In this document: in pieces, positions 6,418 through 60,900 of the stretch | Layout: each line of letters opens with the position of its first letter | Position numbering within the stretch: position 1 is the first letter of the stretch | Assembly (NCBI RefSeq): GCF_052324685.1 | Contig: NC_135212.1 | Span: forward strand, 18,626,548-18,690,547 | Reading direction: 5' to 3' | DNA from: Brachyhypopomus gauderio | Taxonomy: Eukaryota; Chordata; Actinopteri; Gymnotiformes; Hypopomidae | DNA length: 64,000 nt | The notes under the pieces: model-generated | What the model was told of the DNA's origin: nothing | Seen by the model: the letters and a program-made list of their open reading frames with translations, nothing else | Databases searched by the model: none | Program-made: the position numbers and the translations under genes

Positions 6418-7958
6418 AGGGTTTTCCATCCACCGAGTTTTTGCGCATTTTGAAAATGCGCATGAAAAAAACTGGATGGAAAAAGACCAAAATTCGAAAA
6501 AAGCCCCAAATATCGCAAAAAGATTTTTACGCTAGGAGGAGGTGGAAAAGTTAGACTATCGCATCGCCAAAATTCGGAAAAACTGGATGGAAAAGGGTTT
6601 TTCGCATAAACGATGACGTATCATGCCTCAAGTCATGTGGTTCTGTACACGATCGCGAAGTAAAAATGGCAAATGCATACAAAAACAGTTCTGGAGAGAG
6701 CAAAAATTGAATTTAACTTCTCCATGTATAGAAAAGAAAAAGAAAAAAATGTTTCAAAACCTCAACGTGCAAAAATGCGTAACTGCCAGATGGACGTAAA
6801 ACCACTATTGTTTGGCGTCCTCTCACGTGATCTAAACGTGAGAGGTGGTATGTAATACAGGGGCCCCACAAGGAACTGTCTTAGCACCGTTCCTTTTCAC
6901 CCTGTACACTGCAGACTTTAGGTATAGCACACAGAACTGTCACCTCCAAAAGTTCTCAGACGACTCAGCTGTTATCGGTCTCATCAGTAATGAGGACGAT
7001 CGAGAATACAGACTGGTTATTCAGAACTTTGTGGATTGGTGCCAAGCTAACCGCCTCCAGATAAATCCTGGGAAAACTAAGGAGCTGGTGGTGGACTTCC
7101 GAAAGCGCAGTCACCCTCACCCAACACCGGTGAACATCCAGGGAACGGACATCGACATGGTGAACTCGTACAAGTACCTGGGTGTTCACCTAAACACAAA
7201 ACTGGACTGGTCGGACAACACTGCTGCACTTTACAAAAAGGTTCAAAGCAGACTCTATTTATTAAGAAAACTAAGGTCATTTGGAGTGCGGGGGCCACTC
7301 CTCAAGACCTTTTTTGACACTGTGGTGGCATCAGCCCTTTTTTATGGAGTAGTGTGCTGGGGCAGCAGCATCACTAATGCAGACAGGAACAGACTGGACA
7401 AACTGATTAGAAAGGCCAGTTCTGTTCTGGGAGAACCCTTGGACACGGTACAGGTGGTGGGAGAAAGGAGAATGCTAAAAAAACTGGCAACTCTTATAGT
7501 CAATGAATCCCACCCCATGTTTGAGACTTTATCAGCTCTGGGCAGCACCTTCTGTGACCGACTGCGTCACCCAAGGTGTGTTACAGAGCGTTACCGGAGA
7601 TCCTTCACCCCTGCTGCAGTTAGACTGTACAATCAGCACTGCTCTCGTTAGCAATACACTTTTTGCCTATAGTTCTTTTCGCTTATATTCTATGTATATA
7701 TGTATCAATGTAAGTTTGGAGTCTTGTCCTCTGTACTACTGTCACTTTGTCACTTTGTACCACTGTCACTTTGCTGCTGGGAATTGTGAATTTCCCCATT
7801 GCGGGACTAATAAAGGCTTATCTTATCTTATCTTATCTTATCTTAAAGTTTATTCGCATAACTGTAATGAATGGAAACAAGGCTTAATTCGCATTTTTTT
7901 CTGCCGAAACTTGGAAATTGCGCATTATTTTTTCGAAAGGTTTGGATGGAAACCCGGC
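6418..7958. mobile_element. MITE-like element with TIRs, split by a LINE
   Basis: The left end reads agggttttccatccaccg and the right end is the complement of gccgggtttccatccaaac. Both ends also carry repeated tgcgcatttt and aactggatggaaa motifs. This gccgggtttccatcca-type terminus is common in fish MITEs. The middle is occupied by a 5'-truncated LINE (6850-7850). No transposase is present. A clear target duplication was not established. Confidence 0.6.
6850..7850 (+). mobile_element. 5'-truncated Rex1/CR1-like LINE with reverse transcriptase C-terminus
   Basis: The open frame at 6845-7651 (268 codons) begins at the reverse transcriptase motif GAPQGTVLAPFLFTLYTADF. It continues through FSDDSA, which corresponds to the catalytic F/Y-x-DD motif, then QINPGKTKE, SYKYLGVHL and the C-terminal thumb region, to a natural stop. 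The 3' UTR ends in a (TTATC)n tail at 7830-7848, a hallmark of Rex1/Babar-type fish retroposons. Everything upstream of the GAPQG motif is missing, as is usual for LINE 5' truncation. It is not a functional element. Assignment to Rex1 rather than another CR1-group clade is inferred from the tail and motif style. Confidence 0.75.
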
Positions 7959-10905: not shown

Positions 10906-11068
10906 ACTTTACTGTTTGAGCTTCGACTGTCTGCCTGTTCCTGACTCTGGGTTTGCTTCACTCTTTTGTTTGATTAAAGACTGCAGCTGTGGTACTGAGA
11001 TTCTTTGGGAAATTAATAAAACTTCCTGCTGTTGTACATTAAAATGAGGGAAGATTCAAATCTCTTAC

Positions 11069-12971
11069 CATAGACCTGGATGTAGATTGCTGAATTTCCT
11101 GATGCCATCACTTCATTTAGACGACGTTTGTAAAGTGAGTACACACAACTGTAATTACCAGAGTCCAGTGATGAAATGTTTCTCAAAATGAAAGTATGTT
11201 CATCTTTTTTTCCAAGTTGTTCTGTTTTCAGCCCAACACCATTTTTGCACAAGTACATGTAAATCTGGTCACTTGATTCCCTTTTGTTAAAGATGCTACA
11301 CCTGAACATTAAATCTTCCCCAGCTTTCACAGTGGAGTTTCCATATATTTCTGCAGGCCAGTAATCATCTATTGACAAGAAATATAGCATTACGTTATTA
11401 ACTGAGATTCGTAAATTAAATCAGAATAGTTACGACAAAAACATTATTATAGTATAATAATAACAATTGTAAGTCCCATTCACTGCACCAAATACACAAA
11501 AAATACAATATTATAAAAAATACAAAATAAAGTTCCACGGGAAAAACCATATTAATGTGGCTTCAGCAGCTTATTTACAGAAAATGGTCATTGATTATGT
11601 CAGAGAAAAAACTGGAAGATAACTGGAGCAATAGAATTTATGAATATTGGACTGAGTATATAACACTTCTCTAGTATGCATATGAAAAAATGCTTAAATT
11701 TGAAACTTCTATTCAATGATTGCACACCTGTTTAGCATAAACCATGTGCATTACCTTTTGAGATATATTTTTGATGTCAGTGTTTTGATGTTGATGACGG
11801 TGTTTTTAGTTTGAATTTAGTTTGCTGTAGTACATTTTGGAAGAATCTTTTGAAATCTTTTGAAAACTCATTGAACTGCATGTTGAAGGATGCATGCATG
11901 ATTTTCTTATCACATAGACTTGGATTGTTTTATGTCATGTTTCCATTACATTCAGTTGCTTGATTAAACTTATTATAAAATTTTAGTATATGATGAATTG
12001 AAAAAGTGTGTGTGTTTCTGTGTCCTGTCTCTGTGTATCACTCCACTGATCGTTTCTTTCCTAATTCCTCGACTGCCTGCCTGTTCCTGACTGAGTTTGC
12101 TTCACCTTATTTTTTTGATAAAAGGTTGTTTGTAACTGTAGTGTCGAGACTCTTCAAAAAAATTCACTGAATTTCATGCTGTTGTACATTAAAATGAGGG
12201 GAAATTCAAATATCTTACCATTGACCTGGACGTAGATTGCTGTATGTCCTGATGCCATCACTTCATTTGGAGGACATTTGTGAAGTGAGTACACACAACT
12301 GTAATTTCCAGAGTCCAGGGATGAAATATTTCTCAAAATGAAAGTATGATTGACTTTTTTTCCAAGTAGTTCCATTTTCATCCCAATACCATTTTTGCAC
12401 AAATACATGTGAATCTGGTCACTTGATTCCCTTTTGTTAAAGATGCTACACTTCAGCTCTAAATCTTCCCCAGCTTTCACAGTGGAGTTTCCATATATTT
12501 CTGCTGGCTGGAAATCATCTATTGAAAAAACAATATTAACACATTAGCAAGCACTTTTTTAGAATAAAGCTTTTAATAAAGGGTTAAAAAACAGCTTTAA
12601 AAGTGATATAGTATAATGAGATTACAAACTTATTTTTATCATTATTGTTAGCTAAATTAGCATGATATAAATTAAAAAATGATATAATTAGTATGTGAAA
12701 AAATACCTTTTGATTGAGATACTGATATGGCCGTCATTAATAACATATCTTTCAAAAAAGACAAAAGAAAAAAAAACATGCACTATATTTTAATAGAAAA
12801 TGCAAAATATGTTTTTTGCAAGCTAAGACAATAAATGATATAAATATCGTTCTACTTAATTTCATAGTCATTTAGAAAGTGAGTACTTTCAAATTCTAAG
12901 AAAACATTTAAAGATTTAAAATGTTAATATGACAGAAGTTACTTACATACTGTGATGCACCACATGGCCAT
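11069..12971 (-). CDS. Ig-superfamily receptor A: signal peptide plus two Ig domains, partial
   Basis: Four minus-strand exons with GT-AG borders and consistent phase are visible: 12947-12971 (ATG start, MAMWCITV), 12707-12748 (completes the hydrophobic leader), 12219-12518 (Ig domain 1, 300 nt) and 11069-11368 (Ig domain 2, 300 nt). Each Ig exon begins DD(F/Y)xPAEIYGN and carries a first Cys in (K/R)CSIFNK, an extra Cys in MYLCKNG and the closing Cys in DSGNYSCVYS. The two Ig exons and their flanks are recent tandem duplicates. No transmembrane or cytoplasmic exon follows before transposon sequence takes over, so the gene is probably truncated or makes a secreted product. The domain type matches receptor B at 40985-45403. 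The specific family is unknown; immune-type surface receptors of fish are the likely group (inference). Confidence 0.7.
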
Positions 12972-17408: not shown

Positions 17409-18840
17409 TGCCTGTACTCAGTCCATGTCCCCATTTGCACATGCTATCTTGGTCTTAATGGTCTGGTTGGCTCTTTCTACCAACCCCTGCGACTGGGGGT
17501 GGTAAACAGTGCCAAACTTGTGGGTTAAACCCAGTCTTTGTTCTGTCGTGCTCTTGATAAGGAAAAGGTTTGTGAATTTATGAACGCCATTACTCCGTGG
17601 TTGGTGCTGATTACTAGGGGATGACACATTACTAAGTGTGCGGTTTTTTCTATTGCCGCGGTGAGCATACCTGTCAAGTTTTGTATTAAAAAATACAGGA
17701 TATTTCCCGTATATGACGTCATCGCCTAATTTGCATAATCAGTTATTTGCGTAGCTGCAATCGAGGCTGTAGGAGAAACGAAAACATCTTTGGAGTGTTA
17801 AAAAGTGAAGAAAAAACACCCCAAATATGTTTTGAACTACAAATAAAAAAATTAATTTTCTAGTGGTATTTCTAGCTACAAATGGGGACATCTCTTGGGC
17901 ATATTTCTGTGCCTTTAGCCCGCGTTTGTGCTTGGCAGATTGTTCGTGCTGACGGACATCGTTCCTTCCCCCATGAGAGGCACTAAAATCACAGCTGCAT
18001 ATCTTACAGAATGAGTAGCTATGCCCCTTCATGCTCCACTTTAGGAAAATAAATTCCCTGTCCCATTCGTCAAGGTACTCACACGCACGCTTAGCTTTTT
18101 TGGCAGGACTGCCTTCTCTCGTCAAATCCATCTCTGATTTGTTGTTCCAGGTTTGCTCCCACTGTCGACACTAAACCCGCGGGTTTAATTTTTTTTTTTT
18201 TAAAGCATTCATGTGTCGCTCCAAACAGAATTCTGTCACTAGCCTCACGAGAACTGTCATCTGCAGTAGTCTGGGTGGCAGTTCTCGCGAGGCTAGTGAC
18301 GGCACTAGCGGCACATGAACACTTAAAAAAAATAAAAATTGAAAACTGAAAATACGGGACAAATACGGAAAAATAAAAATACGGGACAACGCCGGGACAG
18401 AGCGGTAAAATACGGGACCGTCCCGGCCAAAACGGAACACTTGACAGGTATGGCGGTGAGTCCTGCCATGTACGTTGTGCGTGGTCCTGTTCCTATCGCT
18501 GGTTGATCCTGGTTTGAACTATGAAAAAATATAATTTTCCTGCTTCCTTCCCAGCCCCTACCCAGCCCCCCCCCCCCCCCCCCTCCCTCCCCTTTTCTGG
18601 AAGAGACAATCATGAACAAAATTGTCTCTTAAAGAAACATTAAGGTGAATTGTTTTAGTGTAATCTGGTGCAGCTAATTCAGTGGCGCTAGCAAGTGCTT
18701 GTTTCAAAGTTATGAAATCCCGCTCTGCCTCAACCGTCCAGTCCAGTGCCACTTTCCTGTTGTTCTGGTTGTACATAGTGTTTGAAGAACCTTTCGTTAT
18801 CACCGCGCTGCACCCCAAATGTATGAGTTTTGAAATCAGT
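17409..18840 (-). mobile_element. Degraded endogenous retrovirus pol fragment
   Basis: Minus-strand pieces in several frames resemble retroviral pol. The segment around 18590-18818 looks like the reverse transcriptase connection region (contains LDWTVEAERDFITLKQAL). The segment 18453-18520 continues it and resumes after a nested hAT at 17560-17657. The segment 17418-17530 matches the integrase core around [17 protein letters not shown]. Frameshifts, deletions and the hAT insertion have destroyed it. No LTRs, gag or env were identified nearby. Pol style suggests an epsilon- or gamma-like retrovirus, with low certainty. Confidence 0.65.
17666..18452 (-). mobile_element. Short hAT element with a BED zinc-finger exon, inside the retrovirus
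   Basis: The terminal inverted repeats are catacctgtcaagt and its complement. A perfect 8-bp target duplication, gcggtgag, lies at 17658-17665 and 18453-18460. The minus-strand frame at 17739-18131 encodes the N-terminus of a hAT transposase. It has a basic KKAKR stretch followed by a BED-type zinc finger (FCKICSCDF then RQHEQSAKHKR). The frame then runs into non-coding sequence, and the catalytic RNase H-like domain is absent. It is a deletion derivative that needs a helper to move. Confidence 0.8.
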
Positions 18841-19924
18841 GTTTCTTCAAATTAGTATTTACAACGTTGTCAGCTTTCAGTGCATGTTTAGTTAACACTA
18901 ATATATTCTTATCGGTTCATATAAGAACATGTGTCTGACATTCCTGTCCGATCATAGTTTAACTATAACCGTAGCGTTGAAATATGTGTTCTGGCGGTTC
19001 AGAGTTTATGGTTAAAAATATAATTTTAACTATTAATGTTATGTATTTATAGTGCTTGAAAAGCACTATATTGTTATTCCTTGTACTTCTTATTATTATT
19101 CTTCTTCTCCACATTTCTGCAATTAATTCAGCCCGGACTGCTTAACGTACACTTCGTTTGAACTGCGTTTCGAAGGTCTCGGCTTTCACAGGTGTGCAAT
19201 CTGTTTTTGGAGTCGATTATAGTTGAAGATTTTAATAAAATTGAGTTAAAAAATTTTTTAAAGCTCCATTAAAATGAAAGGTGGAATGTTCAGAATTTCA
19301 AATTTTAACTGCCAATTAGAGTGTGCTGGCATGAAAAATGATCAAAACTCTCCTGGATAAACTGCTGTAAAATCCTTACACCTTTACCTAGAAGCCCCAT
19401 CCAAATTTTAAATGGGAGAGAAACTTGTCCCTTCTGGCACGCCAAGATATCTAATCATTTGATCAATTCGTTTTAGAGTTATGAGCATTTGTGTGGCACT
19501 AGACACAGAAAACTGCCCCATTAGCTCCCATGTTAATTTCTCAGAATCAGAATAGGATTTTTCACAATTTGCCTCTGTGTTTAACTTGTCATAAATCAGA
19601 CACTATTGGGTCGAACCACACAAAAATACATCAGAATCATCAGCAAGGGGTCCTCTCTCACACAAGCTCTTCGGTTAAGCGATAAGTTAAATGGGTCCCG
19701 AATTACGACCGTTTGTTTGGATGGTCCAAATCACACTTAAACAAGGATTCTCCACTCAGAGAGGCAGTGAGAGTGTCAGTTATTTTTGAATGTTATTTTT
19801 GTATGCGCACATGCATACATCTCTCTCATACCTACTCCACACAGACACACACATACATACTGTACATCTCTCTCCCATACTCACTCACACCGACACAGAC
19901 ACAAACACACATACATCTTTCTCA
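18841..19924. repeat. Unclassified dispersed-repeat-like sequence
   Basis: It includes the perfect short palindrome tagtgcttgaaaagcacta at 19051-19069, followed by a TTATT-rich stretch and a CA-rich region (19830-19930). The tgcttgaaaagca motif is familiar from fish interspersed repeats, but I cannot delimit the element. No gene was seen. Confidence 0.4.
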
Positions 19925-20583
19925 CACACACGTCTTTAGACTCAGTAGGTATAGCCCAAAATGTGACAGGACTTACTCACCGCTGTAAACACACCTTAGA
20001 CTTAATATTTACTTATGGGTTAAACATAGAACATTTGGCAATTATCCCCCAAAATGACGCCATTTCAGATCATTCCCTACTAATATATGAAATAGCTTTA
20101 TATGATGTACATCAGATGCGCCATACAAAAACCACACACACTATCACATCCGACACCGCAGCAACATTTATTAACATACTACCAGAGCTACCGAGCACTA
20201 TGCCACTGCAGCCCAATGAATTAGAACAGGCAACACAACAGTTTTATTCCACACTCAGCAATACCTTAGACAGTGTAGCTCCAGTTAAAACAAAATTAAT
20301 TAGGGAGAAAAAGCTTTCTCCATGGTATGACGACCACACTTGTCTTCTAAAACAGGCAGCTCGAGCAGCGGAGCGCAAATGGAGATCCACCTCACTAGAA
20401 GTGTTTAGAATTACATGGAAAGACGCCGTAGTCAAATATAAACATGCCCTAACAAAAGCTAGAGCCTCATATTATTCGACACTAATAGAAAACAACAAAA
20501 ATAACCCTAGATTTCTCTTTGCGACTAACAAGTATCAAAACTAACAAGAAATATCAATGACACTAGTTCTAATATGGCACTTA

Positions 20584-22200
20584 CAGTTGTGATCAAATTT
20601 ATTCAACCCCCACTGAAATAAAGTGTTTTGGCCAGTTTGACATTGATTTTGATCATTTCAGTCATCTTATTTACAATTATATCAAAGAGGCACTTATAAA
20701 TTAGACAAACATAACATAATATTTATGATGGAATAACCACAAATGTCTTTACTGTGCTCACATCATTATCAGTTTTATTCAACCCCCTAGTGACATTATT
20801 TTTTAGTACTTAGTACAACATCCTTTTCCAGTCATGACAGCTTTCAAGCGTGAAGCATCGCTTGACACAAGTGTCTTGCAGCGACCTATGGGTATCTTAG
20901 CCCATTCTTCATGGGCAAAAGCCTCCAGTTCAGTCACATTCTTAGGCTTGCGCACTGCAACTGCCTTCTTTAGGTCCCACCAGAGGTTCTCAATTGGATT
21001 TAAGTCTGGTGATTGCGATGGCCACTCTAGAATGTTCCAGCCTTTCATGTTCAACCATGCTCTAGTGGATTTGGATGTGTGCTTCGGATCATTGTCCTGT
21101 TGGAAGGTCCAACGTCTCCCAAGCCGCAGGTTTGTGACTGACTCCATCACATTTTCCTCCAAGATCTCCTGGTACTGAAGGGAATTCATGGTACCCTGCA
21201 CACGTTGAAGCTTTCCTGTACCATTAGAAGCAAAACAGCCCCAAAGCATAATTGACCCCCGCCATGCTTCACAGTAGGCAAGGTGTTCTTTTGTTCATAA
21301 GCCTGGTTCTTCCTTCTCCAAACATAGCGCTGGTCCATTGTCCCAAACAGTTCTAATTTAGTTTCATCTGACCACAGTACACTGTCCCAAAACCTTTGTG
21401 GCTTGTCCACATGACTTTTGGCATACTGCAGTCGACTTTTCTTGTTCTTTGGAGTCAGCAAGGGGGTGCGTCTGGGCGTTCTGGCATGGAGGTCTTCGTT
21501 ATGCAGTGCGCGCCTTATTGTCTGAGCTGAAACTTCAGTGCCCACATCTGACAGGTCTTTTTTCAGTTCCTTAGCAGTCACGCGGGGATTTTTCTCCACA
21601 TTACGCTTCAGGTAGCGCACAGCAGTCGCGGTCAGGATCTTCTTTCTGCCACGACCAGGTAACGTTTCCACTGTGCCCTTTAACTTGAACTTGCGAATGA
21701 TACTTCCGATAGTGTCTCTTGGAATATTTAACAACTTCGCAATCTTTTTATATCCATTGCCATTCTTGTGAAGAGCAATAACCTCTTCTCTTGTCTTCTG
21801 GGACCATTCTCTTGCCTTCACCATGCTTGGAAACACACCAGTAGATGTCTAGAAGGAGCTGAGTATCACAGTCCTTTTAAATCTGCCTAATTGGTGCTTA
21901 TCATGCTTGATTGCTGCTCGTTGACATCCACAGATGTTTTCAATACCTGATGGAAAACACTGGAATGAACCTCTGTTCTTAGGAGTGGTAGTCATAAAGG
22001 GGTTGAATAATTGTGTCAATGAAGAAATCACAAAAAGGCCATTTAATACTTTATGACAAAAAAAATTGATGCTATCTTAGTTGCATTTAGTTCTTTAACA
22101 AGTCCTTGTAAGATTTCATTATGAACACAATTACAAATGTGCACTGAATTCCATAAAACCCTTCGCAGCATTGGGGGTTGAATAAATTTGATCACAACTC
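20584..22200 (-). mobile_element. Tc1-like transposon, nearly intact, inside the L2 LINE
   Basis: The 1,617-bp element has terminal inverted repeats beginning cagttgtgatcaaatttatt (left) and gagttgtgatcaaatttatt (right, complement). It is flanked by the TA target at 20582-20583 and 22201-22202. The transposase lies on the minus strand in two overlapping frames. The LINE reads on across the junction once the element and one TA are removed. Confidence 0.92.
20803..21836 (-). pseudogene. Tc1/mariner transposase with a single frameshift
   Basis: This enzyme would cut and paste its own element at TA sites. The first frame (21836 down to 21186) holds the paired-type helix-turn-helix region (TREEVIALHKNGNGYKKIAK), the GRGRKK linker and the first catalytic aspartate in LWSDETKLELFG. 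The second frame (21249 down to 20803) starts MLWGCFASNGTG and holds the second aspartate in QQDNDPKHTS and the glutamate in DLNPIENLWWDLK, i.e. a DD34E-type triad. The two frames are separated only by a one-base loss in a G run at about 21256, within the conserved KHGGG-x-x-MLWGC stretch. Apart from that the gene looks complete (about 340 codons), implying a fairly young insertion. Confidence 0.9.
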
Positions 22201-22787
22201 TACACACACTAGTGATGAATTTTTAAACTTTTTTAGTAATAAAATAGATATTATCCGACTACAGAGTCATAATACATCACAGCCTAACCTCCTATCCAAC
22301 CCCAGTAGTATAGGTATTAGTAACTACGCATCCGAAAATATTACTGAGCTAAATGGCTTCGATCCTATATTGCAAAAAGAGCTCACAACACTAATTCATT
22401 CATCTAAGCCTACATCATGTATATTCGACCCAGTTCCAACCCGTCTATTCAAAGACCTACTCCCAACTATTACAGGGCCCTTACTTAATATGATTAACAG
22501 TTCCCTTAACCTAGGATATGTGCCCAAACAATTAAAATGCGCCGTAATTAGACCCTTCATTAAAAAACAGAATCTAGATCCGCAGATTCTAGCCAACTAT
22601 ACACCAATTTCTAATCTCCCATTTATCTCTAAAATTCTAGAAAAAGAAGTTTACAATCAGTTAAACCATTATCTCCAATCAAATAGTATCCATGAAAAGT
22701 TCCAATCAGGATTTAGACCGAACCACAGCACTGAAATAGCTTTACTCAGGGTAGTGAATGATTTACTGATATCGTCAGATAATGGAG

Positions 22788-22935
22788 AGAGTGTCTATAT
22801 GTCTGAGGGGTGTGTACCTGTCTTGTTTATTATTTTTATTTTCTTACTTTATCTTGTTTTGTTTTGTTTTCTTTCTTGATATGGACCATGTACCTTGTGT
22901 CTGAGGTAAATAAAGAATGGAATTGAATTGAATGG
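22788..22935 (+). mobile_element. Short LINE 3' tail inserted in the L2 reverse transcriptase
   Basis: A 145-bp non-coding segment ending aataaagaatgg(aattg)n interrupts the reverse transcriptase between LLISSDNG and DLSAAFDTV. The (aattg)n end and AATAAA are typical of a severely 5'-truncated LINE. A short candidate duplication (aatgg) flanks it. Confidence 0.55.
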
Positions 22936-24362
22936 GCTCATCTCGTTCCTTATCTTATCTTAGATCTTAGCGCAGCTTTTGATACTGTAGACCACAACAT
23001 TTTGCTGGATCGACTAGAAAACATGGTAGGTATTAAAGGAGTTGCACTCTCCTGGTTTAGATCATATCTGACCAACCATGTAAGTGTTAATAATAAAACA
23101 TCTAAATCTGTTCAGGTTAAATATGGTGTCCCACAAGGGACAGTCCTAGGACCACTTCTATTTACACTTTACATGTTACCTTTAGGCGAGATTATACATA
23201 AGCACGACATCGGTTTCCACTCCTACGCAGACGACACCCAACTATATTTATCGGCTAAACCCGATGATTTAGGTGTAAACAGTAAAATCGAGAAGTGTGT
23301 AGAAGAGATAAAACATTCGATGGCGTGTAACTTTCTAGCACTAAATCCAGATAAAACAGAGCTAATAGTTGGGTCTAGGGCAGCGAGAGACAAGATACGT
23401 AATGTAGCATTGAATCTACATTCCTTTACTATAACCCCCAGCGCAGAGGTAAAGAACTTAGGTGTCACTATAGACCCAGATCTCTCGTTCGATTCACACA
23501 TTAATAATATAACTAGGGTAGCTTTCACTTACGCAACATTGCTAAAATTAGAAATATATTAAATACTAGTGATGCGGAAAAGCTAATCCATGCATTCATA
23601 TCCTCTCGCCTAGATTATTGCAATAGTCTTCTAGCTGGATGTTCTGGTAAATCGATAAACAAACTCCAGCTTGTTCAGAATGCAGCAGCGCGAGTTTTAA
23701 CGAAAACTAAAAAATTTGATCACATTAGTCCCGTGAAGATCACAGCAGGTGGAAGAGCCTTTTCTTTTAAAGCTCCACAACTGTGGAATAATCTTCCTGC
23801 CTTTATTCGGGACTCAGACACAGTCTCAATGTTTAAAACTCAACTAAAGACTTATCTGTTTAGTTTGGCCTTTGAATAATCTGTTACATATTTACCACAT
23901 CACATATCTTTCTTCTCCGAGGTTCACTTGGGGAGTAACACTGTAGTTGGAGCCTACAATTCCAGTATCATCGCTCTGACACGGAATGAAAACCTGGCGT
24001 TCATCATAAGACATTTACATTGACAATATCAACACCCAGAACTTTCATTCTAGTTACCTTATACTTAGCCTGATTGTGTGATTTATTTGTAACTTGTGTA
24101 TTAGTCTGTATAATTTGTTTTTGTGTTATTTGTGTGTTAACGGGCCGCCCAATGGAGGATGGGTTCCCTCTTGAGTCTTGGTCCTCCCAAGGTTTCTTCC
24201 TATTCCCCACCATCTAGGGAGTTTTTCCTTGCCACTGTCGCCTTTGGCTTGCTCTTTAGGGTTTTGGACCCATAGTATTGTTAACCTTGTAAATCCTGTA
24301 AAGCGCTTTGTGACAACTTGTGTTGTGAAAAGCGCTATACAAATATATTTGATTTGATTTGG

Positions 24363-40984: not shown

Positions 40985-43900
40985 CTGATAAACAACATCT
41001 TGTAAGTTACAAGCTGTGAGAAAAAAATCAATAAAATATCATGTGTAAAGCCACTGGGAGTTGTAGCTCTGCACATGAGTTCAAGGCAAAATTCAATGCC
41101 ACATATTTTGTGAGAAAAGCCTTTTAAATTGAAAGTTATTCTGAAAAAAGTGCAGACTTACTTTCGTCATAACTGTCAGAGGAATCTTCCCACTCTAAGC
41201 AACTGTTCAGACTTCAGATAATAATTTGGATTAAATAAGAATGTAACATTGTAATTTGACAATTGTATTTTTTACAATTTAATTAACTTTGGAAAGCTGG
41301 TTAACTGTGTCAAGGGGATTCACTACAATATAGCTTACCTTGGCACATTTTGCACTTCATCTGTAGGGGAAAGTTCTTCTAAAAAGATCATTAGAAAAAA
41401 AGATTGAAGTCATTACTCAAGTCTATTAGAGTAACACAGTTGCACTTTAAAAAAAAGATTTTTATTAGTGGTGTCAATTCCAGGTTCCGCGATTAAGTCA
41501 TCACCAGGATTTTGCTCAAGCTTGCTAGATTTCCTAATTAGCAATCCAGGTAAAATTAGTGGAATCAACACAATCCAGGAAGCCTGAGCCAAATCCTGGT
41601 GAGGACTTTTAATCGCGGAACCTGGAATTGACACCTCTAATTTTTATTCATTTCAAGGTGCAATATATCGAAACATAAGTAACTACAAAGATAAGCAATC
41701 ATCACCTTCATGCTGAATATCAAATCCTCTTGATTCACTCCCAGGTTGCAATGATCTGGTTTAGAGAAACAAGTCAGCACCATTTAAAACACAAAAATAA
41801 AAAAGGGTTATCACAAACCACACAAAAACAAACAAAATCTAACCTTTCAATTGTGCATCTGTAGCAGACTGTTGAAGAAAAACAATAAAATAAAATGAAA
41901 CAAACATTTTAATAATTGTTAAAGATGTAAAATGTATGACCAACACCCAAAGCTACTATTAAAAACTATACTAGCACTACATCATGTGTGTGTGTGTGTC
42001 TACGTTTACTTACCTTGACCTTTAATCACGGCCCAAATTCCCAGAAACAAAATGAGACACGGCAGCAAAGCAGAGGTCACCAACACAATTCTTATTGTGT
42101 CACTTGAGCCTTCTGTCAATTGAAGCAGTGATACCCTTAATACCTCATGCAACACCACACTACTGTTAAACTATAAGAAGTAACATCTTAGCTTTTACTT
42201 TGTTGATAGCTATTATCTAACAGTCAGTTTGATTAAAGTATTTCGGTTTGATTCTCATGATACACTCTCACGAAAATCAGAAAGCCCACATTTCTGTGTA
42301 CCGTACTCTGTGCATTTTTGTGTTGACCCAGCTCTTACCAATAACATGGAGGTGAGCTTCATTATTCCCCTGCATCATGTCAGGAATAGGCCATATATCA
42401 GATGACAGGAAACAGATATATGTTCCAGCATCATGCATCTTGACTTTTTTTAGGGTAAAAATGGCCTCCTTCTTCTCTGTATCCCAAATGTTCACCTGAA
42501 TAACAGTTCCATTCTTGCATAGATAGGCATAAATATTCCTCATGTCCTGCCAGCTGTCCAGGACAAGTGAAGATGTACACCTGAGTTCAACATCACCTCC
42601 CTCCATCATGCTCGCCTTAGGCCAGGATATGTTTGCAGGAACGGAAGAATCTGTGCATGTGTGAAAACATTCATGCAACACTTTTAATGTCTCCTTAAGC
42701 ACTTATAATACATTTAATAACATTTTATCATACTCAAACAATTTTGCACGATTATAGACAATACCAATACTTATGTTTATAGCAAATGTCTATAGATTTG
42801 CTGTATGGTTCCTTACCACCTGCTGTCAGCTCCTTGCTATGTTGTGTTTTATTTTCACTGGGTGGAAATATCCTATAACAGTGCTGCAAGCTCATTTTAT
42901 ATATATATATATATTAGTGGTGGGACTTTAACGCGTTAATTTCGATTAATTAATTACAGGAAAATTAACGCACTAAAAATATTAACGCATTTTAACGCAT
43001 GAGACACTTTTGCACCGTGGAATGTTTCCCCGTGCACGAGTTCCAGACATACAGAGTATATGGACGCACAATAAGATGAGCATGATGCAGATGACTGAAG
43101 AGGCTACGCTGGTGGATGGGAAATTTAAATTTTATGTAGGAAGGAGTTCGCTTATCACGGGAGCACTTCCACCCTTCGTTACCACACCAACGCAAAACAT
43201 GTTGGGGCTAACGCGCAGGTCAGTAATGATCACTTAGCCACTTAGCTGCTAATTGTATTCCTAGTACGATATGGTGAACAAACGTCCGTATTTTCCGGGA
43301 CATGTCCGTATTTCACATCCTGTCCCGGGCGTCGCGGGTTTTTTTTAAGTGAGGAAATGTCCTGGGGTGAGTTTATAACTTTTGTTTCTTTAGGAAATTT
43401 GGAGGAAATCTGAATAATACACACCATCTGAAAGACTGTGGGTTGCACTGGAGTCTTCTTAAGAAAGGACATGGACTTCTGAGCATGTAGCATTCTCCTT
43501 TTGCTGCCTTAAAATTTGTGCAGACATTGTGTGTCTGGCTGTTCAAAGTGGGTGGAGCAGTCACAGTATCTGCGTGTGTGTGAGCGTCACATGTCCTCCC
43601 CCAGAAGGAGGGGCTGCAGGAAGAGCCCAGCTGTACCCAGGATGCACACCAGAATAAAAACCCACAGAAAGATTCTGTCGATCACCATTTGCTTTGAGCA
43701 TGCAGAAGACCACTTATAGGCACTATGGAGATCCCTGTGGCAGAGGCCTGGAAAATTAAAGAAAAATATACCATCTAAAATGGTATTAAAAAACATCTTC
43801 TGATTAACTTCAATTCTTCCAATATCCTGAGCAAAACTTCCAAAATTAAACAACATTTTTGGTCAGAATTTCCAGTGTTCTGAACTGTTTTTTGCACTCA

Positions 43901-44105
43901 TCTATTGGTCTATGTAGTAGACTGGTGGAAAAATAAACAAGATGTTGAAGTTTATGATTATGTTCATTGATTCATTCATCATTCAAACTTAAATTAATAT
44001 TTCTCATGTTAAATACTGAAATGCGATTAAAATGCGATTAATTTCGATTAATTAATTACAAAGCTTCCGATTAATTCGATTAATTTTTTTGATCGCGTCC
44101 CACCC

Positions 44106-44194
<89 letters not shown>

Positions 44195-45403
44195 GTCATT
44201 ACAGACCTTGTGAAGTGATCAGCTGTACACCAAAGTCTGTATATATGTCCTATATACTTTTCAACAACAAAACATTTAAATGGATTCTAATAAAATAATG
44301 CCAATATATTGATTAATCAGAATATGTTTTAACATTAATAGTACGATGATCGCAGAATATTACTAGCAAATAAAGGCCTGCGAGATGTTTTTGTCACAAA
44401 GTATACTACTATAATGGTGGTGACAGCAAAAAGCTTCAAACAGTAGTTACAAATATATTAGGTATTCAGCATTCAGACATATTCAGCATTCAGACTGCCC
44501 AAAGAAATTTACAAATGGACTTTGGAGAAACACTTGAAACAGTGGATAAGTCATTCATAATGTTCTGAACATGTGAAATATAGCATAGATGATAAACATC
44601 TTATGAATCAATATTATTGCACTTCTAATGCATTGTGGATACTGTATAATATAATCACCATGCTATAAAGAACGGTACCTGAATGTCATTAAAACACTTT
44701 CCCAAATATCTTTGGTAGAGTATAATCCGCCATCTTATATTGCATTTTAGAATGCTCGCTTAGCCTAATTTATGTGATCTGGTAAAGCGAATTAAAAACA
44801 AATAAATGAGCAATTAGTTTAAAGAAGTGCTACACTGCTTACCGTCCACAGTAATAAGAACATTAGCAGAATGACCCTTCACGTCTTTGGCATTGTACTT
44901 CTGTTCTGAGTAGACACAACTGTAATGGCCTGAGTAATTCTTTGTGATGCTGTCGATATGAAACATAACGTCTAGACAGGTTGACTCTTGGATGAGCATG
45001 ACTTGGCCGTCCTTGCACAGGTAGAAATATGCTTTTCCTGATTGTTCCTTTAAACCAAAAAGGCTACATTTGATTGTCAGCCTGCCTCCTTCTTTGAAGT
45101 TGTTATTAGCATAAATCTTTGCTGGATGCATGTTTTCACCTGTGATGGGAAACATAATAATGCCACAGTGACTCCAGACAGGTAATGTGATTTCTTACTT
45201 TTATTGTAATACAAATGCACCTTAATACCCCATTCATTCATCCCTACCTTGACCCTGAGTTATCCAGACCCAAATTGCTGTTAAATGAAACCAGACATCA
45301 TACAATCACTCTGAATTCCTAATCAAGCTCAATCATTCATGTATTTTTACGTCATGTAGACATGTAAGTGTCACTTACATAAGATAAGCATGAAGCAAAG
45401 CAT
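40985..45403 (-). CDS. Ig-superfamily receptor B: two Ig domains, membrane segment, multi-exon tail
   Basis: Ten minus-strand exons with GT-AG borders keep one reading frame: 45379-45403 ([11 protein letters not shown]), 45248-45277 (end of leader), 44843-45139 (Ig1), 42339-42650 (Ig2), 42014-42112 (membrane span [20 protein letters not shown], then WAVIKG), and small cytoplasmic exons 41844-41868, 41706-41755, 41339-41378, 41162-41211 ([15 protein letters not shown]) and 40985-41013 (NLQDVVYQ). The last exon is uncertain. Ig1 has Cys in IKCSLFG, an extra Cys in YFYLCKDG and closing Cys in GHYSCVYS. Ig2 has [15 protein letters not shown] and GTYICFLS. It is a type I surface protein, probably a leukocyte receptor (inference). 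The tail has tyrosines but no clean ITIM. Intron 3 carries the hAT element at 42915-44108. Confidence 0.75.
42915..44108. mobile_element. hAT-like element carrying a captured CHRNA3 exon
   Basis: The left end TAGTGGTGGGAC is mirrored by GTCCCACCCCTA at the right. Both borders carry cgattaattaattac and acgcgttaa/aatgcgatta motifs. It sits inside an AT microsatellite, with flanking 8-mers atatatat on both sides (42907-42914 and 44109-44116). No transposase was recognised. The interior holds the CHRNA3-derived block 43375-43688 and a stretch with ttttccgggacatgtccg motifs near 43290 that resembles the border of another hAT family. Confidence 0.75.
43375..43688 (-). pseudogene. Captured copy of the CHRNA3 last exon and 3' flank
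   Basis: These 314 bp match 46624-46937 with no mismatch or gap that I can find. They cover 212 bp of 3' flank plus the exon from [10 protein letters not shown] (fourth membrane segment) through the final LLLGEDM and stop. The copy breaks inside the codon series YVAM/VIDR, where unrelated element sequence begins. It cannot make a receptor but could be transcribed in the sense direction of both CHRNA3 and receptor B. Confidence 0.9.
44109..44191. repeat. (AT)n microsatellite
   Basis: About 40 AT units. A shorter run at 42897-42914 is the other half of the same array, split by the hAT insertion. Confidence 0.95.
44192..44842. other. Intron of Ig receptor B, no other feature
   Basis: AT-rich intronic sequence with no repeat or exon recognised. 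Confidence 0.5.
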
Positions 45404-46560
45404 CTTCGAGGTTGAACTAAAGACGTCTGCTGTCTTCGTCTTTGTCCTGAAGTCTGAAAGAACTCACAAGGCTGTTAGCACAAAGCTAACTCGTCATCCC
45501 GTTACCATCCGCAGGCATGCAGTGTAAAAATGTCACATTATGAGTGACAATTTTACATGTTTAGAATCTTCCTAAATGTGTATATTTTTCCAACTGTCCC
45601 TTTAAAAACATTTTATAATTTTATTGTATATTACCACATTTACATACCATCAAATTCATCATAACAGTAGTTGTATTTTATTTGTTCATTTTTACATTTA
45701 CTGAGTTGTATATACACATAGGCCTACTTCATACCTCTGTTATTTTCTTATTGTGTTAGTTTGCTTGTTTGGAACTACACAGTGCATCAAACACTCTTTC
45801 AGGAGTGACCTAATTTGTCTAATGGATTGGTGTTGTATGCTTATTAAATTTGTAAGTACAAGATTTGCTTGTCCTCTGGTAATCACTCAGTTGCCATTCA
45901 AGTGATAAAATGAAATGATCTAAACAATTATTTTACCTCATAAACGGTTCAATACTCAAATATAATTTCTCAGTCTTAGGTCTGAAACCAAAAGGTAAGA
46001 CTTTTTTATGCTCTGCTAATTATTCAACTAGTAAAAGCGAGCACTTGAGTTTATTCTGATCCAGCATGGTGTACCACAAGACAGGCTAATGCTGTTCTTC
46101 TTGTCCGTGGTTACTTTTACAACAAGGTGCGCATCAAACCATGCACATGGGAACATGCGTTTAAATGCTAGACGACCGTTTTACTGTTAGATCTGTAACC
46201 GACGATCAAAAACCACGTCCTGTAAGTGCCATGTCATTTTCACGGCACACAACTAATAATAGCACAGTACATTATGAAACTGTGAAAAGAATAAATGGAT
46301 GGTACTTGCTTACTCTATCCACTGGAGGGCATTGTCCTCAAAGTTCCGGCAAAAATATATATATAAATTATATATTATATTTAGTGAAACAATTATATAA
46401 TATTTAATGTAGGGTCGCATAAACCTTTGTTGTGACAAAAGTTGATTGACTGGTAAACTTGAAGCTGTTTTTATTTGTTTTAAAAAATGGTCACCCATAC
46501 ATTGCATTTAATAACAGATCTTCAGGAACTACATCAAAATTCTATAAAACGCTATGACAT
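45404..46560. other. Spacer between Ig receptor B and CHRNA3
   Basis: It contains the promoter side of receptor B and the 3' side of CHRNA3. No exon of CHRNA5 or another gene was found. Confidence 0.5.
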
Positions 46561-46835
46561 TTCAGTAGTGATGAGTCACTTTATAGCTATTCTTAAAGAA
46601 CTTTATAAGCATGACACATTTAAATAACTTTTGTTTCTTTAGGAAATTTGGAGGAAATCTGAATAATACACACCATCTGAAAGACTGTGGGTTGCACTGG
46701 AGTCTTCTTAAGAAAGGACATGGACTTCTGAGCATGTAGCATTCTCCTTTTGCTGCCTTAAAATTTGTGCAGACATTGTGTGTCTGGCTGTTCAAAGTGG
46801 GTGGAGCAGTCACAGTATCTGCGTGTGTGTGAGCG

Positions 46836-54473
<7,638 letters not shown>

Positions 54474-57915: not shown

Positions 57916-60900
57916 TCACATCCCATTCCGCCGGGACGACTCGGCGCCGCCCTGCTGGACTGACCCGGTTTGACTCTGGAAGAGGGGCTGCAGGAAGAGC
58001 CCTAACGTCCCCACCACACACACAATAACAAAGATCCACAGAAACATCCGGTCCACAACCATGGCGACGTACTTCCAGTCCTCAATGACCTTGGAAAAAA
58101 AAACATGGGGGGGTGGTAGTTAAAACCATGGATTATGTTGGAAAACCAGAGCAGAGAAGAATATGAATACAAACACAGCGCAAGATAAAAAACTGCAGTG
58201 TAAAAATAAGTCCAAGTAAGCGGGTTTCGGTTTGGTGAGTGCTGAACTGTAAGCCAGAATGGTATTGACCCCATAACCCTGATCCCTGGCAACTGTCTTC
58301 TGCACTTTCCGAAGGCCACTATTAGTTATCGGTGGATGCACTCCCCCTCCTTTATTGATTTATTCATGAAAACAATCAATGGCCTGACGAAGCGGTTTGG
58401 CTTTAATGTACTTCCTAGCACCTCTCACTCTCACCTCCATCTTTGAACTGTATCCCTAATGGCCTAACGCAGTGGGGCTGTCAGTCAAGGTGTTCATAAT
58501 ACCCAGTACATGTTCCTGAGGCTTAAGATAACAGCTATCTGAGGAAATTAGACAAACAGTCTAAGAAACAAATATGGTGTTCAGAAGGTCTTCTAGGAAC
58601 ATGCATATTTTTGGTCTAGTGCTTCTAGAGTCTCTTCAAGAATTTATGAAACCACTGTGTGAATATATACCCAGTACAAGCAAACTTTTATTTGACTATA
58701 TACTGTATACAGTACAACAGAGATATATGATGAACAGTACAGGACAGAATGGAAGCTTTAAAGCACCACTTACACTCTGATCATCATCATTTCCCATCAT
58801 GTGGTCAGCAACGTAGCGAACCCCATCCACCGCCTCCTGAACGTCAGCGCCCCAATCCAGACCTGCCCTGCTTCCTCTCAGATCCTGGGCGGAGGTGTGA
58901 CCATTAGACTGGAGCTCGGCGGGCCTCGTGTTCCCTCTCCTGGGGGCGGGCACGGAAACGCGCGGCCCCACCTTGCCGTAAAGGTGTCCCGGGGAACAGA
59001 GGGCGGGGGCGGAGGATGCAGCAAGCAGGGCGGAGGCTGAGGAGGACACGGCCGAGTTGCGGGGAGCCCCGTAGCCGAGGTCCGGCGGGTCCCTGTGGTC
59101 GGGGAGGTGGCACTGCTGCCGAAGCCGTTGCCGGGCTGAGTGGCCCTGGGGCCTCCGCATGAAGAGCATGGTGGGCAGCTTCTCCAAGAAGACCAGCTTG
59201 ACCCAGGACGGCATCGTGTGCGTGCTCGGAGAGCGGTGGTGCACATTGAGCACACACACGCTCGTAATGATGGAGAAGGTCACCAGAACCATGGTGAACA
59301 TCAGGTACTTCCCGATTAAAGGTACGTCCAGGGAGGTGGGCGGCACGATCTTGGAGATGAGCAGGAGGAAGACAGTGAGCGCCAGGAGGACGGAGATGCA
59401 CAGGGTCATCTTCTCGCCGCAGTCGGACGGCAGGTAGAAGACCAGGATGGCCAGCGAGGTGATGAGCACGCATGGGATGATGAGGTTGATGGTGTAGAAG
59501 AGCGGCTTTCGCTTGATGATGAAGTCATAGGTCAGGTCCACGTAGGTGGGATCCTGAGCGTTAACCGTCCTTCTCCCCGGCAGCGCCAGTATGTCCCACT
59601 CGCCGCTGGGAGTGAAGTCGTCCATGCTGGCTGCCTCAGACTTCAGGACGAGATCGATCTCCGTGTGGTCGTACGTCCAGGAACGAAACTTCAGCGTGCA
59701 GTTCTGCTGGTCGAAGGGAAAGTGCTTGACCTCGATCTTGCAGGCGCTCTTGTAGATTGCAGGAGGGAGCCATGCAATGGTGCCGTTAAACAGCACGATG
59801 GCGTTGGTGAAGACTGTCACCTCATAGGTCCCATCAGCACTGAAAGCAGGTGAGGTAATGACATCTCTATAATTGCTGCTATAAAACCCGATACCTTATC
59901 ACAGCCCTTAATACCCAGTTACGTTTTGCTAATTGACTGCAGACACAGTCGAATTAATAATTTAATAATATATCAGTAATCCTTATTTAATTTTTTATGC
60001 ATAATTACTCCCATTATACTATTCTGTAGACTAAAATGATAGCAAGAATTCTTAAAATTAATAGTATGTGTATTATACATGAGCCTCTACATTACTAATT
60101 AACAGAGCGCAAAATGATTTTCGAATGCTTTAATGCGTTTTGGTGTGCATTTAACTTACTTATTGTATAAAACGATGTCAGGTAGCCAGATGTGTGTGGA
60201 GGGAATCCGGAGCTTATCAATACCCTCATACTCAGACGGGTCCCATGACAGTCGGTAATCATTCCAGTTCTAAGCAAAGAAAATGACAATTGCTGTGGTT
60301 GAGCTGAGATTATTTAGAAATAAGGCCACCAAGCAACCGCATGCTTCTCAATTACACACTCCGTTATCATTTTAATGTGCGGTAGTGAGAGGGAGTGATC
60401 GCCACTCTTCCAGTGAACAGGCATGTCGGTGTGCAAATCCAAGGACAAGGATAATGAAGCCCTTTGTTATAACCGCTGTATTGTGAGCGTGTGGCGAGCT
60501 GCTCGATCGTACCTGCGTGAGCCACACGTTTGTCGTCATGATTTGTTCTCTCTCGTTCTGAGTGGATCAAAGAAGTGCACAGAGAAGTGTGTTCACATTT
60601 TTACACAAATACTCACAGCAAACCATAACAAGACAAATTCAGACAAATTCAAAACTACCACATGTGGAAAACAGTTATGAAAAAGCTTCGCAGTTCTGGC
60701 GCATAGATACAAGGCTGTTTCCACGATGAACTCACACCGGTCCTCTCATACAGACCAATTTTATGTGACAGTGATTTCAATTACAAGATGGGAAAAGGAC
60801 AATAACGGACCATAAAACAGGATATATGTGGACTGCTATGTTTTCCCTTGTTATGACCCTGTAAATCACGGTGTGGGTTCTGAACAGTATCTCAACACTA

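What the first reader, a model, noticed from the sequence alone, without database searches (positions are those of the whole stretch)
42915..44108. hAT-like element has captured the last exon of the neighbouring CHRNA3 gene
Positions 43375-43688 repeat 46624-46937 over 314 bp with no difference that I can see (constant offset 3249, so no gaps). The block spans 3' flank and most of the CHRNA3 terminal exon (fourth membrane segment to stop) and lies inside an element with TAG(T/G)GGTGGGAC inverted ends and atatatat on both sides. Gene-fragment capture (Pack-type transduplication) is well known in plant MULEs; a vertebrate hAT example with an identical donor 2.5 kb away would be unusual. Identity implies a very recent event, or gene conversion with the donor. 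Transcripts could interfere with CHRNA3 by shared sequence.
Basis: partly seen in the sequence, partly recalled or inferred. Interest (0 to 1): 0.9.

Follow-up and report, generated by a model that had tools for sequence, protein, structure and literature searches.

The report
Jumping gene that copied CHRNA3's tail
In a fish genome, one very young copy of a common jumping gene has had part of its middle replaced by a perfect copy of the end of the nicotinic receptor gene next door, most likely through a slip during DNA repair; events of this kind are known in animals, but here the copy, its source and unaltered sister elements can all be read side by side.

Summary
Window 43375-43688 equals 46624-46937 at 314 of 314 bases: 33 of the 42 codons of the CHRNA3 M4 exon, the stop and 212 bp beyond, inside a 1194-bp hAT element (42915-44108). 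In the 796.5-Mb genome the block has exactly two perfect copies. The carrier belongs to a large young family: its right part drew 1352 candidates, of which 40 were scored. In the 8 closest sister copies, 6 match all 880 bp of the carrier's flanks exactly, yet hold 462-469 bp of hAT interior where the carrier holds CHRNA3. So about 469 bp were replaced by 314 bp. The left breakpoint cuts a 114-bp palindrome that 39 of 39 other copies examined keep; the right junction shares 3 bp (CAT). Best reading: break repair with a template switch to the neighbouring exon. This is a Pack-TIR, a known animal class in which hAT carriers and nearby donors are common (Tan et al. 2021), so it is not unusual in kind. 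A speculative extra: the copy lies in sense in an Ig-gene intron, behind a strong in-phase splice acceptor. Expression could not be tested.

The parts
42915..44108 (+). Carrier: non-autonomous hAT element, 1194 bp, ends TAGTGGTGGGAC / TAGGGGTGGGAC; transposase remnant reads on the + strand
   Evidence: family copies
42915..43374 (+). Left part of the element (460 bp), identical to 7 of the 8 closest sister copies and one base different from the eighth
43129..43224 (+). Remnant of a BED zinc finger ([22 protein letters not shown]), followed by a donor-like GTCAGT
   Evidence: Pfam zf-BED 20.9 bits, cut-off 20.6; translation
43284..43352 (+). Stretch resembling the 5' end of a second hAT type found at 18452-17666; already present in the sister copies, so older than the capture
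   Evidence: local score 38 against a maximum of 26 in 500 shuffles; sisters
43361..43374 (+). Outer 14 nt of the left arm of the 114-bp palindrome; the rest of the palindrome is missing from the carrier
43375..43688 (-). Captured block: copy of CHRNA3 3' flank, stop codon and 33 codons of the M4 exon, in the same orientation as CHRNA3
43686..43688 (.). CAT shared by donor and parental element at the right junction (3-bp microhomology)
   Evidence: carrier right part aligns from sister position 927, i.e. 423 bp
43689..44108 (+). Right part of the element (420 bp); repeat-family sequence throughout
   Evidence: 40 scored copies match over positions 1-420; 8 of them at full score, the carrier included
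43747..43749 (-). Acceptor-like site (TTTTCCAG, first exon base 43747) on the host-gene strand, in frame with the copied M4
   Evidence: rank 10 of 3974 AGs on that strand of the window by a recalled position table; null
46624..46937 (-). Donor of the block
46836..46964 (-). Coding part of the last CHRNA3 exon (M4 to stop)
44843..45139 (-). First Ig-type exon of the host gene; its donor GTAAGC begins at 44842, after the first base of a codon
   Evidence: Pfam Ig_2 27.3 bits, cut-off 27
42280..42650 (-). Second Ig-type exon of the host gene (acceptor at 42650; low end as in the ORF tested)
   Evidence: (best Pfam match Ig_2 23.4 bits, below its cut-off of 27)

Best explanation
A very young, internally deleted hAT element sits in a TA microsatellite in an intron of the Ig-type gene just downstream of CHRNA3. 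This copy was broken, or a replication fork stalled in it. Repair synthesis ran through the left part of the element into a long hairpin-forming palindrome, left its template there, copied 314 bp of the CHRNA3 last exon about 3 kb away in the same orientation, and was joined back to the right part of the element over 3 bp (CAT). About 469 bp of hAT interior, with nearly the whole palindrome, were thereby replaced by a gene fragment. SHOWN: the copy, the donor, sister copies with the original interior, both breakpoints, the microhomology, single-copy status and the absence of differences. INFERRED: the break, the palindrome as cause, the direction of synthesis and the order of events. Within this reading I give about 60% to a break in place at the palindrome and about 35% to an excision gap.
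For: Two perfect copies of the block in the genome, carrier and CHRNA3. 6 of 8 closest sisters are identical to the carrier over all 880 bp of flank, the other two differ at one base each, and all 8 hold 462-469 bp of interior instead of the block. The left breakpoint lies in a palindrome that folds as DNA at -59.8 kcal/mol, z -15.7, kept in 39 of 39 other copies examined. The left-edge motif followed by a base other than C occurs once in the genome, in the carrier. CAT is shared at the right junction. Cis donor under 5 kb, small insert, one copy and microhomology are the features on which Tan et al. base gap filling (PMC8277862).
Against: The palindrome may be coincidental: the chance that at least one of two uniform breakpoints falls in it is 16%, and 3 bp or more of microhomology has a chance of about 5%. 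The left junction has no microhomology. The lost interior is 35% of the sister element, against a median of 4.6% in Tan et al.. No raw reads, no relatives and no allele without the capture could be examined. The 40 copies examined are the best-scoring ones, not a random sample of the family.
Confidence: 0.86

Rival explanations
1. Excision-coupled abortive gap repair: transposase cut the element out, the gap was refilled from the sister chromatid from both ends, synthesis aborted and took filler from CHRNA3, as proposed for filler-bearing Ds elements of maize. (A variant of the best explanation that differs in the origin of the break.)
For: The family is young, with several identical copies, so transposase was probably active recently. 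The lost interior is large (35%). Maize Ds2 elements carry filler between hAT ends, and a repair origin after excision has been suggested (PMC3260210, abstract and passages).
Against: Both breakpoints are far inside the element (460 and 420 bp from its ends); Tan et al. expect breakpoints near the ends and larger gaps for excision. Single copy, cis.
Confidence: 0.35
2. Assembly artefact: the 314-bp block was duplicated into the element by a misassembly.
For: Perfect identity over 314 bp within 3.3 kb; long TA repeat beside the element. No reads were available.
Against: The contig is 49.9 Mb long. The block does not just interrupt the element: 469 bp of it are missing and the junctions are clean with 3-bp microhomology, which a simple assembly join would not produce.
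Confidence: 0.03
3. The capture happened elsewhere and the finished Pack element then transposed here.
For: The family has been active recently.
Against: No other perfect or near-perfect copy of the block exists in this assembly, and the element lies beside its donor.
Confidence: 0.03
4. The block lies between independent insertions rather than inside one element.
For: The left part contains a stretch like the 5' end of a second hAT type.
Against: That stretch is in the sister copies too, and there the same left and right parts are joined by hAT interior.
Confidence: 0.01

Closest known systems
Animal Pack-TIRs, hAT type (Tan et al. 2021, PMC8277862)
   Same: Host sequence copied between the ends of a TIR element; hAT carrier; single copy; donor under 5 kb; insert of a few hundred bp; microhomology at one breakpoint; exonic source
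   Different: The lost interior is large (35% of the element; their median is 4.6%); the carrier is young and its unaltered sister copies are identical; the left breakpoint is inside a long palindrome (I saw no palindrome mentioned in the sections read)
Filler-bearing Ds2 and Ds-l4 elements of maize (PMC3260210, abstract and passages seen)
   Same: hAT ends with part of the interior replaced by filler, in some cases gene fragments (2 Ds2 and 9 Ds-l4 reported)
   Different: Plant; the two gene captures illustrated come from other chromosomes; here the donor is the neighbouring gene
Pack-MULEs of plants (as described in PMC8277862)
   Same: Gene fragment between terminal inverted repeats
   Different: Other superfamily; often from other chromosomes and a third of them multicopy

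Membership tests
hAT superfamily | 8-bp target site duplication | tested here: met
   6 of 6 sister copies outside TA repeats, among the 18 copies whose flanks were printed, have a perfect 8-bp duplication; the other 12 have a TA repeat on the left, and one of these (L025) shows no matching right flank. At the carrier itself it cannot be told
hAT superfamily | Short terminal inverted repeats | tested here: met
   TAGTGGTGGGAC / TAGGGGTGGGAC, 11 of 12 identical
hAT superfamily | hAT-type transposase (BED finger, hAT catalytic and dimerisation regions) | tested here: inconclusive
   BED finger just above its Pfam cut-off; peptides from the sister interior and right part gave no Pfam match, their hAT look is recalled; the autonomous partner was not sought
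Pack-TIR | Host sequence flanked on both sides by one TIR element, with an identifiable parental copy | tested here: met
Pack-TIR | Parental copy without TIR element in its flanking 100 bp, and not a spliced retrocopy | tested here: inconclusive
   No copy of the carrier's parts lies near the donor, but other repeat families beside the donor were not masked; the block lies within a single exon plus 3' sequence, so splicing cannot be read from it
Pack-TIR by gap filling in place | Uncaptured element at the same site in relatives | not testable with these tools
   No relatives are held for this genome
Pack-TIR by gap filling | Cis donor and microhomology at a breakpoint | tested here: met
   Donor 3.2 kb away start to start; CAT at the right, none at the left

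The most novel reading that the evidence does not exclude
The capture has made a ready-to-use exon. On the host gene's strand the hAT right part offers a strong acceptor at 43747 in the phase of the Ig1 donor at 44842, and the frame runs through 19 hAT-derived residues straight into the copied nicotinic M4 helix and its stop. Splicing there would give an Ig-type receptor truncated after its first domain and anchored by a receptor-channel membrane helix: a fusion isoform caught at its birth.
Probability: 0.1. Interest if true: 0.75.

Novelty: new member of a known kind. Interest (0 to 1): 0.42.

Why it matters
Gene-fragment capture by cut-and-paste elements is often inferred from diverged copies. 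Here the donor, the product and several identical pre-capture sister elements sit in one genome with no difference in the shared sequence, so the breakpoints can be read to the base. They suggest a nested palindrome as the place where repair synthesis jumped, which makes the fragile-site version of the gap-filling model testable. The event also puts a membrane-helix exon, in sense and in phase, into an intron of an Ig-type gene.

Tried and rejected
Independent insertions: rejected, because sister copies show the two flanks as one element. A second captured piece in the right part (43689-43990), which I suspected from its exon-like look: rejected, because all 420 bp are repeat-family sequence. 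A carrier made a mosaic of two hAT types at this locus: the second-type stretch is real but shared with sister copies, so it is older. Recurrent capture at the same break: the left-edge motif followed by a base other than C occurs only in the carrier (exact matches only); breaks elsewhere in the palindrome were not searched. An existing protein joining Ig1, the hAT linker and M4: 21 hits of 25 candidates, none listing an Ig domain; 7 of the 21 were read, among them the three with the widest coverage, and all 7 end in a nicotinic M4. The database may lack this species. Element motifs in viral and prokaryote collections: 0 matches, as expected for a fish element. Rfam over 42000-48000: 0 at gathering scores. 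Interior peptides in Pfam: 0. Literature: one search named CHRNA3 together with four other terms and found 0 papers; the other eight were about gene capture and repair; 'Pack-TIR' is in one held paper only. Only open-licence papers are searched, so absence from print is not shown.

Full report
WHAT IS THERE. It is real: 43375-43688 = 46624-46937, 314 of 314 identical, with the next base different on both sides (the repeat finder reports 300 of these). The donor exon reads [46 protein letters not shown]; among solved structures it matches an alpha-3 subunit best (6pv7, E 4.2e-19). The large upstream exon matches annotated fish CHRNA3 proteins, best Electrophorus electricus at 88% over 92% of the query, so the window is from a teleost, perhaps near the knifefishes (inference). 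The block begins at the ATG of MVIDRIF and holds 33 of 42 codons, the stop and 212 bp beyond.

COPY NUMBER. The window's own genome (796.5 Mb, 840 contigs) gave 3 matches to the block: two perfect copies, and a 75% match over 81 bp in the last exon of a beta-type nicotinic gene (57982-58062; gene type). The contig is 49.9 Mb long.

CARRIER AND SISTERS. The 420 bp right of the block drew 1352 first-look candidates; the tool scored 40, matching over positions 1-420 at 98-100%, 8 of them at full score, the carrier included. Thirty came with that call; 14 more stretches were fetched, of which 10 are the remaining rows and 4 give more flank for copies already held. Eight copies (L005-L010, L012, L013) have the same 460-bp left and 420-bp right parts as the carrier; 6 of the 8 show no difference over 880 bp, L006 and L013 one each. 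Between the parts they hold 462-469 bp where the carrier has the CHRNA3 block. The capture therefore replaced about 469 bp by 314 bp. Most other copies have a left part about 49 bp longer; some are older, longer forms.

IS IT A hAT? The ends are 12-bp inverted repeats with one mismatch. Of 18 copies whose flanks were printed, 6 lie outside TA repeats and 6 of 6 have perfect 8-bp target duplications; 12 have a TA repeat on the left, one of which (L025) has no matching right flank. So the atatatat at the carrier fits the family's habit but proves no duplication. A BED-finger remnant scores 20.9 bits against a cut-off of 20.6. Peptides from the interior that look hAT-like to me from memory gave no Pfam match.

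BREAKPOINTS. In the sisters the left part runs into a 114-bp palindrome (positions 447-560 of the 1349-bp L005 element). Folded as DNA, 130 nt around it reach -59.8 kcal/mol, z -15.7 against 200 shuffles. The carrier keeps its outer 14 nt and then switches to CHRNA3. All 39 other copies examined keep the palindrome, with shortened arms in L012 and L039; these are the other 39 of the 40 best-scoring copies, not a random sample. The left-edge motif followed by a base other than C occurs once in the genome, in the carrier. The left junction has no microhomology. At the right the sister reads ...CCAGTCAT|TTGC and the donor ...GATCACCAT|GGC: CAT is shared. The chance figures are modest: 16% for at least one of two uniform breakpoints in the palindrome, about 5% for 3 bp or more of microhomology. 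The palindrome is a plausible stall point, not a proven cause. It occurs a second time, elsewhere in the element, in copy L042, so it is probably a small mobile element of its own.

AGE. Assuming neutral rates of 3e-9 to 1e-8 per site per year (recalled), the 95% upper bounds are 0.48-1.59 My for the block if donor and copy both evolve freely, 0.34-1.14 My for the insertion, and 0.96-3.18 My for the block if only the copy does. Gene conversion with the donor would make the block look younger; the clean flanks give no sign of it but do not exclude it.

HOW IT WORKS. Break repair by copying a nearby template accounts for the cis donor, same orientation, replaced interior, short microhomology and single copy. 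Tan et al. 2021 (PMC8277862; abstract, sections 7, 8, 10, 12 and passages) report 370 Pack-TIRs in 55 of 100 animal genomes, 208 in hAT elements, 8 in zebrafish; 160 of 281 unique cases within 15 kb of the donor, the majority of these within 5 kb; median insert 224 bp; microhomology in 190 of 281. They favour breaks in place for single-copy cases. Against a full match, their median gap is 4.6% of the element; here it is 35%. The maize Ac/Ds survey (PMC3260210; abstract and passages) describes hAT elements with filler and notes the suggestion of repair after excision. I give about 60% to a break in place and 35% to an excision gap.

SETTING AND A BOLD READING. The carrier lies between two Ig-type exons of a minus-strand gene; the first passes its Pfam cut-off by 0.3 bits, the second stays below, but a homologue with Ig domains exists in Prochilodus magdalenae (57% over 78%), with the locus number next to that of CHRNA3 and a contig of the same length (335,234). 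So host gene and neighbourhood are real and older than the element. The captured exon is in sense with the host gene. On that strand the right part of the hAT has an acceptor-like site at 43747 that ranks 10 of 3974 AGs in the window by a simple position table (values recalled), above the Ig2 acceptor (score -1.63) and the CHRNA3 M4 acceptor (2.27). From it the frame is open, in the phase of the Ig1 donor, through 19 residues into M4 and its stop. At 0.5% of sampled window positions is there an equally strong in-frame, in-phase acceptor. Against this: it was noticed after the fact; the site is in the family sequence; the nearest AATAAA on that strand downstream lies outside the element at 42853; M4 normally crosses the membrane the other way round (recalled); no protein with this join was found; no transcripts were available. 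I give it 10%.

VERDICT. The event is a new, unusually clean member of a known class, not a new kind of system.

Noticed in passing
17666-18452 (- strand): A second hAT-type element, 787 bp, with 13-bp perfect inverted ends CATACCTGTCAAG and a perfect 8-bp duplication CTCACCGC; its 5' end resembles 43284-43352.
   Followed up: partly
L005 1018-1131 and L042 about 2392-2504: The 114-bp palindrome nested in the hAT also occurs a second time in copy L042, at another place in the element, so it is probably a mobile MITE of its own.
   Followed up: partly
L025, interior: Copy L025 carries about 320 bp of foreign sequence between two TTATAGAT repeats, beginning CAGGGGTAATCAA: it looks like a further element nested in the hAT, not a gene capture (read by eye).
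   Followed up: no
42915-44108 and sister loci: The family often sits in TA microsatellites: 12 of the 18 copies whose flanks were printed have one on the left.
   Followed up: partly
42030-45460 (- strand) and ORFs at 11013-12480 (- strand): Ig-type genes lie downstream of CHRNA3; the one hosting the carrier has a homologue next to CHRNA3 in Prochilodus.
   Followed up: partly
20803-21836 (- strand), 6845-7651 and 19786-23562 (+ strand): Tc1-like transposase frames lie between pieces that look like a LINE-type reverse transcriptase, and another such piece lies at 6.8-7.7 kb (ORFs; names recalled, not tested).
   Followed up: no
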